A stretch of DNA of 64,000 bases from Pseudofrankia sp. DC12 (GTDB lineage Bacteria > Actinomycetota > Actinomycetes > Frankiales > Frankiaceae), in assembly GCF_000966285.1 (NCBI RefSeq), contig NZ_KQ031391.1:6572430-6636429 (forward strand), read 5' to 3'. Position 1 is the first letter of the stretch; each line of letters opens with the position of its first letter. The translations under genes and the position numbers were made by a program. Under the pieces are notes generated by a model, which searched no databases, was not told where the DNA came from, and worked only from the letters and a program-made list of their open reading frames with translations. This document shows, piece after piece, positions 35,092 to 38,046 of the stretch.

Positions 35092-35895
35092 CTAAGGCGG
35101 GCCCGAACCGGTCGGCGACGCGTTGTCGCCCGGTGTCTCGTGGACCAGGCGCTCGGGAATCTGGTCCGCCGGCTGTCGCGCCGAGGGGACCGGGCCGTTG
35201 GTGTAGAGGCGGGTGATGACGTCCTCGATGGCGGGCTCGCGGATCGAGAGGTCGACGACCGGGTAGCGGGCGGCGAGCTCGGCGATGAGCGGGGCGGCGC
35301 TCGCGGTGGCCGGGAACGACAGCCACTGGCGGGGGCCGTCAACGCGGACCACCCGGGCGCCCGGCGTGGTGACGGAGACCGGGGGCACGGGGCCGGGGAG
35401 GTCGACGATCAGGGTGCGGTCGCCGCCGAGGCGGTCGCGCAGGGCCGCGAGGTCGCCGTCGAAGCCGAGCCGGCCGTGGTCGATCACGAGCACCCTCCGG
35501 CACAGTTGTTCGATGTCGGCGGTGTCGTGCGTCGTGAGCATGACGGTCGTCCCGTGCTCGAGGTTCGTCTCGGTGAGGAAGGAACGCACGGCCGCCTTCG
35601 AGGCGACGTCGAGCCCGATCGTCGGCTCGTCGAGGTAGACGATGGCGGGATCGTGCAGGAACGCCGCCGTCAGGTCGCCGCGCATCCGCTGCCCGAGCGA
35701 GAGCTGCCGCACCGGCGTGCCCAGGAACGGGCCGAGGTCCAGCAGGTCGACGAACCGGTCGAGGTTGGCGCGGTACCGGTCGGCCGGGACCCGGTAGAGG
35801 TGGCGGACCAGCTCGAAGCTGTCCCGCAGCGGCAGGTCCCACCACAGCGTGGACCGCTGGCCGAACACCACCCCCAGACGCTGTGCCAGTCGCAT
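35092..35895 (-). pseudogene. ABC exporter ATPase, 3' half of an interrupted gene
   Basis: From ATG 35895 the frame encodes LAQRLGVVFGQRSTLWWDLP, the ABC signature LSLGQRMRGDLTAA, Walker B IVYLDEPTIGLD and the switch His TTHDTADIEQL, but no Walker A. The missing 5' half lies beyond the IS element at 37685-37927, and the two join in frame as DPSRQ-R-MRLAQ. The first six or seven codons have lower GC at third positions; from GVVFGQ onward codon use is typical of the host. This composition switch marks a recombination point. It cannot hydrolyse ATP as it stands. Confidence 0.85.
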
Positions 35896-35991
35896 CCTGT
35901 AACGAAAATGGACGTAACGGTGGGCGCGCCAAAGTGACCGCGGCGGCTCTTGGCCGCTGGGTCGTGCGTGGTGGTCAGTGAGCGTGACGGG

Positions 35992-37385
35992 TCAGGCGGT
36001 GGCTGCCGGCTGGGTGAGGGTGACCTCGAAGCCGAGGCGTTCCAGGCGGCGCTGGGCGGTGGCGGCCTGCTTCGCGGTGTCCTGGCGGTTCGCGTGGTAG
36101 TCGGCGCCGAGTTCGTTGTAGCGGGCGTCGGGGTCGTTCAGGAGGTGCCAGATCGTGGTCGTGAGCGAGCGGGAGACCGCGACGATCGCCTTCTGGGGGC
36201 CGCGGTTCGCGCGGATCCGCCGGTAGCGGTCGCCGTGGAACGTCCGGGTCCTCGACAGCGCGAACACGGCCTGCCCCAGGACCCGGCCACGTAGCGGTTG
36301 CCCTTCGCGGTATGGGCTGGTCCGGACCGGCCCGCGGACTGGTTGGCCTTCGGGACCAGCCCGGCCCAGGACGCGAGGTGGCCCGGGGTCGGGAACGCCT
36401 CGACGTTCGTCCCGATCTCGGCGATGAGCGTGTGCGCGGTCTCCAGGCTGATCCCGGGGATCTCAGCGAGCCGTTCCGCAGCGCTGAGCCGCGCCCCGCC
36501 GCCGTCCGGCGGCGGGGCGTCCGCGTCCGGGAGTGCCCCGCCGCCGGTGGGGCCCGGGCTGTCCGGGGCTGGCGGGCTGTCCGGGGCTGGCGGGCTGTCC
36601 GCCAGGGCCGCGACGGCCTCGGCGATGGAGGCGTCGAGGGCGGCGATGTCGGCGTCGAGCCGCTCGACCCGGTCGATGATCATCCCCAGGACCAGGGCGT
36701 GGGCGTCCTGGAAACTGCCCTGGAACGCCCGGACCAGGTCGGCCCTCCTGTTCCGCAGCGTGCCGCGGGCCAGGTCCGCGAGTACCGCGGGTTCCCGTTC
36801 CCCCACGACGAGCGCCCGTAGCATCGCCCGGCCCGACACCCCGAACAGCTCACTGACCACGGCCGACACCTTGATCCCGGCGTCCTCGAGCAGCTTCTCC
36901 GCCCGCTGCATCTCCCGGGACCGTTCCCGCACCGCCGCGATCCGGTAACGGGAGATCAGCCGCAGCTGCCGCTGCTCCCTGCCGGGCACGAAGCTCGGCT
37001 GGCACATCCCCTTCTCGGCGACCTTGCACAGCCACACCGAGTCGATCTTATCGGTCTTGGGCCGCCCCGGGAGGTGCTTGACCTGGCGGGCGTTGACCAG
37101 CCAGCAGCGCAGCCCCGCGGCCTCCAGCACGTAGTACGGCGAGCGCCAGTAATCCCCGGTGGCCTCCATCACGACCAGCTCAATGCCCTGGCAGACCAGA
37201 TGATCGGCGAGGTTGACCAGGTCGGCGGTCATCGTGGACCAGTCGGTCACCTCCTGGCGCCGCCGGCGACCCCCGCCGTCGGCCGGCACCCGCAGGCACG
37301 CGACCAGCCCCTTCTTGCCGATATCCAACGCGGCGACCCGCTCCACGAACGGACCCGCCTCCTCCGTCACCTCGGTGGCCACAAC
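35992..37385 (-). pseudogene. IS110 transposase, frameshifted near the C-terminus
   Basis: The start is GTG 37385 or 37382. The N-terminal RuvC-like DEDD domain shows AALDIGKKG (Asp), VVMEATGDYW (Glu) and KTDKIDSVW (two Asp). The Tnp2 domain follows with LAEIPGISLETAHTLIAEIG and FPTPGHLASWAGL. A Pro/Ala/Gly-rich insertion with a repeated DSPPAP motif sits between them. At GNRYVAG (about 36290) the frame breaks. The expected continuation RVLGQAVFALSRTRTFHGDRYR runs on in another frame to the stop at 35992. One missing base, probably in a C-run, explains it. As drawn the transposase is inactive unless this is a sequencing error. Confidence 0.8.
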
Positions 37386-37684
37386 GGACCGACCGCCTCT
37401 CCCCACACGTCGGGACACGGCAAGCCACCCGGGGAGCCAGGGCAGAAAACTCAATCTGTAACGCGCGCTCGCAGCGCAGTGCACAGCCCGACAGGCAGGC
37501 TCCCAGCGCCAGACTCTGACACGCCCTCACAAGGCGGCAAGGAGGCATCGGCGTCGACGGACAGCTCAAACAGCATCATCCCGGACCATGCCCGCCACAC
37601 CACGCCAGGTCCCAGCCAGCCACCCAGACGGGCCAGCCACACATTTTCGCGCTTGCGCGGCCGCCCCGAAGGGCCCGGGAGACT
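37386..37684 (-). ncRNA. Candidate bridge RNA of the IS110 element
   Basis: This is the non-coding leader between the element end and the transposase start, where IS110 elements encode their bridge RNA. In RNA sense it contains GTCAGAGTCT at 37520-37511, identical to the left junction (target GTCAG, core AG, element TCT). Further 3' it has CGTTACAG at 37463-37456, identical to the other element end plus core (35904-35897). Target-type guide first and donor-type guide second is the order known for bridge RNAs. A CCCGGG near 37430 could be the right donor guide. The right target guide was not found. Exact RNA ends are unknown. Confidence 0.6.
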
Positions 37685-37927
37685 CTGACGTGAGGGATCA
37701 AGATCGAGTACACGGATGTGCCCCGCCGTGGGAACCAGGATCCCCACCAGCATCTTGATCGTTGTGGACTTCCCCGCCCCGTTGGGGCCGAGGTAGCCGA
37801 CGATCTCGCCGGGTGCGATCTTAAACGAGAGATCGCGAACGGCCTGCATGTCGACACGCTCCCGCCGGAGCCTGCCCGTCCGTTTGCGGAGGACGAAGGA
37901 CTTTGTAACCCCCTCAACCTCAATCAT
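37685..37927 (-). pseudogene. ABC exporter ATPase, 5' half of an interrupted gene (foreign composition)
   Basis: ATG 37927 opens [15 protein letters not shown], then Walker [16 protein letters not shown] and ends at DLDPSRQ, where the IS110 element begins. Together with 35895-35092 it would give a complete ATPase. About a quarter of its codons end in A or T, unlike the host 3' half. It is closely similar in protein sequence to the stranded fragment at 41075-41392, so two alleles of one family are represented. Confidence 0.83.
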
Positions 37928-38046
37928 GGCCACATGCTCCCAGGTGGCCTCTGCACAGTTGGTATGCGGCTGTAGTCGCGTGATTACGTGGCCATCTGGT
38001 AGCGCGCGCCGGCCGTAGCCCTGTTCACCCGAAGCGGCGGCAGGCC

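What the first reader, a model, noticed from the sequence alone, without database searches (positions are those of the whole stretch)
37386..37684. IS110 leader encodes a candidate bridge RNA with guides matching both junctions
Seen: the element's leader contains AGACTCTGAC (37511-37520), identical to the right junction at 37680-37689, and CTGTAACG (37456-37463), identical to the left junction at 35897-35904. Each match spans the CT/AG core. Established: IS110 bridge RNAs lie upstream of the recombinase and carry a target loop then a donor loop, with guides identical to target-plus-core and donor-plus-core. Order and content here fit that model. Inference: a new bridge RNA with a readable target (GTCAG-AG-GATG) inside an ABC ATPase gene. 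The right target guide was not found.
Basis: partly seen in the sequence, partly recalled or inferred. Interest (0 to 1): 0.85.

Follow-up and report, generated by a model that had tools for sequence, protein, structure and literature searches.

The report
Bridge RNA with reversed target guides
A jumping DNA element in an actinobacterium carries an RNA guide that matches both its own end and the gene it landed in, as in known programmable IS110 elements, but in its branch of the family one pair of guides lies in the opposite order to the best-studied example.

Summary
The IS110 element (35899-37684, minus strand, 1786 bp) interrupts an ABC ATPase gene in frame at CAG|AG|GATG. A covariance model built from 38 other elements, without this one and its nearest relatives, finds the leader (94.5 bits, E 1e-15; only hit in the window). 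Over up to 62 leaders, guides match their own left target and right end better than swapped ones (0/2000 permutations, both tests). This reverses IS621 and ISEc21 and is the order published for IS1111 elements. (2) The two bases after the target-guide core copy the element's first two bases (39/40, 34/40; hold-out 16/17, 16/17). (3) The ends carry covarying inverted repeats (40/51 elements). So: an IS110-position bridge RNA with IS1111-like features, a new variant of a known kind. The window copy's transposase is frameshifted, so this copy is probably not autonomous; its right-guide pairing alone is not significant. No right donor guide was found.

The parts
35899..37684 (-). IS110-family element, 1786 bp counting one AG core
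   Evidence: empty-site comparison with ABC ATPase genes of the same genus; joined flanks in frame
36138..37484 (-). transposase ORF carrying the DEDD domain and most of Transposase_20; its last ~45 residues are out of frame
   Evidence: Pfam PF01548 and PF02371; NCBIfam NF033542 'IS110 family RNA-guided transposase' 199.9 bits; frames compared
35992..36267 (-). C-terminal transposase piece in another frame
   Evidence: matches L003 at 68% in the same frame as L003's main part; the two pieces share one frame in 59 of the 74 loci where both were found, not in the window and 14 others
37422..37568 (-). bridge RNA region found by covariance model R1
   Evidence: 94.5 bits, E 9.8e-16 (rough), only hit in the window; model built without this element
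37540..37547 (-). right target guide (TGCCTCCT), pairs 7 of 8 with AG-GATGCG, mismatch at RT+3
   Evidence: position defined by family covariation; the pairing of this one copy is not significant alone
37522..37539 (-). small hairpin hp1 between right and left target guides
   Evidence: pairs with compensatory changes in A2 (not among the pairs RNAalifold drew on A3); located
37514..37520 (-). left target guide GTCAG-AG, identical to left target plus core; the following TCT equals the element's first bases
37498..37504 (-). helix a, 5' strand (GGGAGCC)
   Evidence: covarying long-range helix
37465..37477 (-). small hairpin hp2 directly 5' of the left donor guide
   Evidence: pairs with compensatory changes
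37456..37463 (-). left donor guide CGTTAC-AG, identical to the element's right end plus core
37432..37438 (-). helix a, 3' strand (GGCTCCC)
37683..37684 (-). core AG at left-end junction; left target CGTCAG at 37685-37690
35897..35898 (-). core AG at right-end junction; right target GATGCG at 35891-35896
37642..37649 (-). subterminal inverted repeat, left copy (CGAAAATG)
35903..35910 (-). subterminal inverted repeat, right copy (CATTTTCG in element sense)

Best explanation
The leader is the gene of a bridge RNA. [quoted passage not shown] The left donor guide pairs with the element's right end in the circular intermediate. Recombination at the AG core inserts the circle. In this actinobacterial clade the target loop is turned round: right guide on the 5' strand, hairpin, left guide on the 3' strand. 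Two further bases after the left target guide can pair with the incoming element end after exchange. Shown by sequence: boundaries, guide identity, covariation, order. Inferred: transcription, binding, pairing in the complex, circular intermediate, and the role of the two extra bases.
For: Covariance model from 38 other elements finds the leader. Own guide versus own DNA: donor guide to right end with a run of 7 or more in 33/52, swapped pairs 3.4%; target guide to left end 33/62, swapped 0.8%; each 0/2000 permutations. Hold-out: left end found 17/20 (run of 5 or more), right end 15/20 (run of 6 or more), no swapped control there. Right target guide at the fixed place: mean run 4.27 against 2.74 swapped, n 37, 0/5000, while three other offset windows are null; hold-out n 15, 5/5000. 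Helix a/a': own sum above all of 2000 permutations; hold-out z 5.7, 0/2000. The same genome holds a second element (L076) and a truncated remnant (L154) with the same RNA and other guides.
Against: The leader alone folds no better than shuffles (z -0.67). No Rfam match near a family cut-off in 35700-38000. No right donor guide was found by covariation in four segments (z -2.3 to 0.8). This copy's right target guide has one mismatch, and its 7/8 pairing is also reached with 8 of 52 other right targets. Right-guide pairing is loose: 25/37 reach 6 of 8, against 32% of swapped pairs, and the Lysinibacillus (L048) and Chloroflexota (L135) members do not fit it. Junctions were located by guide match, so identity next to the core is partly by construction; swapped controls and the post-core bases address this. 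Some rows in the training counts are copies of one element at different sites (for example L004/L036/L057, L011/L012, L074/L077).
Confidence: 0.93

Rival explanations
1. Bridge RNA with the canonical IS621 order: the right target guide lies 3' of the left target guide and the upstream signal is an artefact of alignment or shared ancestry.
For: A weak signal exists 3' of the left guide (anchored run z 2.1, 25/1000). IS621 and ISEc21 have that order. In the column scan the upstream diagonal (z 3.0 to 3.9) is not stronger than some scattered single columns (up to 3.8).
Against: The 5' site gives z 9.0, 0/5000 and z 3.9, 5/5000 in hold-out elements, directly 5' of hp1. Pairing of 8/8 (G-U allowed) in L017, L072, L077, L132 and L148, and the related elements L138/L139 pair with different right targets.
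Confidence: 0.05
2. Chance matches in a GC-rich leader, or an internal duplication of the element's ends with no guide function.
For: Single matches of 8-10 nt are short; the leader is not unusually stable.
Against: 0/1000 shuffles reach both matches. Guides differ between elements and follow their own targets (41 distinct target guides and 26 distinct donor guides).
Confidence: 0.01
3. A genuine bridge RNA but a dead fossil copy: the match records past insertion only.
For: Transposase frameshift near the C-terminus, where 59 of 74 loci keep one frame; only one copy of this element in the genome.
Against: The RNA keeps helix a and both left guides; a transposase from elsewhere could act in trans, and an assembly error or a programmed shift is not excluded. 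Compatible with the main explanation rather than opposed to it.
Confidence: 0.6

Closest known systems
IS621 bridge RNA (IS110 group; PMC11208160 and PMC11208158, passages seen)
   Same: RNA in the left end upstream of the recombinase; target loop before donor loop; left guides equal left target/left donor plus a 2-nt core; an A-N4-G-N motif precedes the left guides at about the published spacing (read by eye); recombinase homologous (profile hit 8wt6, E 1.7e-20)
   Different: core AG not CT; right target guide 5' rather than 3' of the left guide; donor part enclosed by a long-range helix a/a'; inverted repeats of 5-11 bp at the ends; the extra handshake-like bases lie after the left target guide
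ISEc21 seekRNA (IS110 type; PMC11187229, section 12 read)
   Same: upstream non-coding region, guides for both strands
   Different: published order is bottom-strand match first, then top-strand match; here reversed
IS1111-group seekRNAs ISEc11, ISPa11, ISKpn4 (PMC11187229, section 9 read; passages)
   Same: top-strand match 5' of bottom-strand match; subterminal inverted repeats
   Different: RNA generally lies downstream of the transposase there; their repeats, usually 11-13 bp, sit 7 bp and 3 bp from the ends, here 33-42 and 2-5 nt from the core
ISAar29 (one of six elements whose predicted guides are drawn in PMC11208160 Extended Data Fig. 10; legend only seen)
   Same: by its name perhaps an Arthrobacter element and possibly in this clade (my inference; not tested)
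   Different: unknown: the figure is not held, so its guide order could not be compared

Membership tests
IS110-family element | DEDD RuvC-like plus Transposase_20 recombinase | tested here: met
   (ORF frameshifted near its C-terminus)
IS110-family element | insertion at a short core without a longer target duplication | tested here: met
IS110-group bridge RNA | non-coding RNA region in the left end upstream of the recombinase | tested here: met
IS110-group bridge RNA | left target guide and left donor guide include the core and covary with target and right end | tested here: met
   hold-out
IS110-group bridge RNA | right target guide 3' of left target guide (IS621, ISEc21) | tested here: not met
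   guide found 5' of it
IS110-group bridge RNA | right donor guide pairing with the left end | tested here: inconclusive
   no covariation in four leader segments
IS110-group bridge RNA | two stem-loops with guide-bearing internal loops | tested here: inconclusive
   target loop closed by a short stem with weak swapped-pair support (z 1.6 and 2.3) but compensatory pairs in A3; donor part enclosed by helix a/a'
IS110-group bridge RNA | RNA is expressed and binds the recombinase | not testable with these tools
   needs RNA sequencing and binding assay
IS1111-group element | non-coding guide RNA downstream of the transposase | tested here: not met
   RNA model hit lies upstream
IS1111-group element | top-strand guide 5' of bottom-strand guide | tested here: met
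   published order
IS1111-group element | subterminal inverted repeats, usually 11-13 bp, 7 and 3 bp from the ends | tested here: not met
   covarying repeats exist (8 bp here; z 8.1 over 51 elements, 40 of them at the common place) but are mostly shorter and lie 33-42 and 2-5 nt from the core

The most novel reading that the evidence does not exclude
A large actinobacterial clade of IS110 elements carries bridge RNAs whose target loop is circularly permuted relative to IS621: the stem that encloses the loop there is the apical hairpin here. With upstream RNA, IS1111 guide order and covarying subterminal repeats, it is an intermediate architecture between the IS110 and IS1111 groups. It also uses a second handshake, two bases after the left target guide that pair with the incoming element end.
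Probability: 0.5. Interest if true: 0.65.

Novelty: new variant of a known kind. Interest (0 to 1): 0.5.

Why it matters
Bridge RNAs are used for programmable DNA insertion. A clade in which the right target guide sits on the other side of the loop gives different design rules, and its mix of IS110 and IS1111 features bears on how the RNA came to lie at opposite ends of the element in the two groups. The rules are readable from sequence, so they can be tested directly.

Tried and rejected
Right target guide 3' of the left one: weak only (z 2.1). Right donor guide: two candidates of 7/8 pairing in the window (GGGAGCCT and GGGTGGCT) were noted by eye, but none of four leader segments covaries with left ends across the family, so none is claimed. 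Handshake bases after the right target guide as in IS621: looked at by eye in a few elements, no consistent match with the left donor. Rfam, phmmer of the single protein against the PDB (one unrelated hit at E 0.033) and viral contigs (two stretches, no transposase relative: none) gave nothing useful. The five multi-copy left ends in G003 share C(T/C)CTG|AG, but searches for the inner part of that element in G003 found nothing convincing, so its guide could not be read. Alignment A2 missed helix a because of gaps; direct helix search and A3 recovered it. Literature: by title and start of abstract, the searches listed no paper on a permuted target loop or on this clade; the lists were cut (25 of 202 and 15 of 62), and the library holds no bioRxiv preprints, no figures and only open-licence papers.

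Full report
What is there. Everything below is in the sense of the transposase, the minus strand. The element runs from 37684 down to 35899 (1786 bp with one AG core). Its left flank ends ...CACGTCAG, its first bases are AG-TCTCCC, its last bases CGTTAC-AG, and the right flank starts GATGCG. Of nine ABC ATPase loci compared, L090-L094 align across the site without the insert, L095-L097 are more distant and align with gaps, and L098 does not reach the junction; the joined flanks read on in frame. The transposase has both IS110 domains and NCBIfam names it an IS110 family RNA-guided transposase. Its C-terminal piece lies in another frame. Of 92 loci looked at, both pieces were found in 74; they share one frame in 59, and not in the window and 14 others. 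The copy is therefore probably not autonomous.

The observation. The 10-nt and 8-nt matches are real; 3 and 19 of 1000 dinucleotide shuffles reach them singly, none both.

Relatives. A scan of species genomes gave 68 loci encoding relatives, and searches in the genus and among relatives gave more. Sixty-two leaders (the window's included) had enough upstream sequence after three near-duplicates were removed; some copies of one element at different sites remain among them (L004/L036/L057, L011/L012, L074/L077). A common pattern appears: a motif like TTGGTGCC-tGAGCCCG before the target guide, and TTGTTGCC-tGAGCACG before the donor guide. Some leaders align poorly (for example L018, L020, L031, L053, L061, L066, L068); they were kept in the counts. 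There, the donor guide taken from the alignment column matches the element's own downstream end with an uninterrupted run of 7 or more, core included, in 33 of 52 (swapped pairs 84 of 2472), and the target guide matches its own upstream junction in 33 of 62 (swapped 30 of 3702). In neither test did any of 2000 permutations reach the observed sum.

Model test. A covariance model from 38 elements, without the window element, L079 or L003/L080, finds the window leader at 37568-37422 with 94.5 bits, L079 with 68.7 and the cut L080 with 54.7, and nothing else up to E 1 in 113,708 bases. In the whole genome it finds three places: the window, the other IS110 element (79.4 bits; it is one of the 38 in the model) and a remnant at 2,621,978 (59.6 bits) that keeps the leader and a short transposase start. 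Read by eye, all three carry different guides.

Right target guide. Column-wise covariation of right targets with the leader gave an antiparallel run upstream of the left target guide (RT+4, +3, +2 with leader positions 123, 124, 125; z 3.0 to 3.9), though scattered single columns reached up to 3.8. A segment test (36 elements) was clearer: core plus right target paired with the 5' segment far better than chance (z 4.3, 0/1000), with the 3' segment weakly (z 2.1, 25/1000) and with the segments after the donor guide not. Located per element, the best site mostly lies directly 5' of the first hairpin, 13-17 nt before the 8 nt that precede the left guide core. With that position fixed, 37 elements give a mean run of 4.27 against 2.74 for swapped pairs (z 9.0, 0/5000), and three other offset windows give nothing. 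The offsets were chosen, so I tested new elements: 22 plasmid loci were fetched of 44 records with a match at E 1e-40, two were dropped (L144 unalignable, L150 a duplicate), and 15 of the remaining 20 had a right end by nearly the same rule (wider search windows). The right guide held (z 3.9, 5/5000; total pairs z 3.4, 1/5000), with 8 of 8 in L132 and L148. Several hold-out elements are related to one another. Three of the five misses (L134, L138, L139) have a donor guide whose core differs from the DNA; with the end taken from its TTTTCGGGTCAG context, two of these three pair 7 of 8 and one 5 of 8. In the right-target tests four elements with doubtful right ends had been set aside (L008, L018, L026, L055); one search also left out L012 and L077.

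For the window, the guide at this place is TGCCTCCT, pairing 7 of 8 with AGGATGCG. On its own this is weak: 8 of 52 other right targets reach 7 as well. The claim rests on the family.

Order. In IS621 the left target guide (nt 50-58) precedes the right one (77-80), and conserved A and G lie 7 and 2 nt before each left guide (PMC11208158, passages). Here a similar A-N4-G-N spacing precedes both left guides (read by eye), but the right target guide comes first. Siddiquee et al. report top-strand match before bottom-strand match for IS1111 elements and the reverse for ISEc21 (PMC11187229, sections 9 and 12). So this clade has the RNA where IS110 elements have it and the guide order of IS1111 elements. 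By topology this is a circular permutation of the target loop; that step is inference.

Other features. A helix joins +10 to +12 after the target core with +14 to +22 after the donor core in 47 of 51 elements, with many compensatory changes (hold-out z 5.7; RNAalifold on A3). The stem closing the target loop has compensatory pairs in A3 but only weak swapped-pair support (z 1.6 and 2.3). The two bases after the target-guide core equal the element's first two bases in 39/40 and 34/40 and in 16/17 and 16/17 hold-out elements; these bases were not used to find the junctions. I read this as a bottom-strand counterpart of the published handshake guides. Elements also carry a covarying inverted repeat: in 40 of 51 it is 5-11 bp long and lies 2-5 nt inside the right-end core and, where the left end was found, 33-42 nt inside the left one; the other 11 show no clear repeat there (z 8.1, 0/2000).

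Limits. No right donor guide, no proof of transcription, no recombinase tree with named IS1111 and IS110 members, and no access to figures. The two non-actinobacterial members for which a right end was found (L048, L135) do not fit the right-guide rule.

Noticed in passing
L154 (own genome, about 2,621,978-2,622,139): A third bridge-RNA-like leader in the same genome with only a short transposase match behind it (37 residues aligned): a remnant with its own guide.
   Followed up: partly
L102 (G005) and L084 (own genome): Short remnants with the element's left end; L102 keeps both ends over about 160 bp without a transposase match.
   Followed up: partly
L010, L015 versus L022, L027: The Streptomyces elements L010 and L015 have a left flank (TTTACGCGTCAG) like the right end of the L022/L027 type, and AGTC behind their right ends as those do: they appear to have inserted into the right junction of another IS110 element.
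   Followed up: no
L134, L138, L139: The donor guide carries CG where the DNA core is AG, while the rest matches: a core mismatch built into the guide.
   Followed up: partly
window 36138-36267: Frameshift in the transposase near its C-terminus; real decay, an assembly error or a programmed shift. Fourteen other loci also have the two pieces in different frames.
   Followed up: partly
L106, L107 (G012, G022): The same right end (GCGCGCCCACAGTTACGTTCGTTTTCGTTTCAG) and right flank in two genomes of another genus, without a transposase relative in the fetched 3 kb.
   Followed up: no
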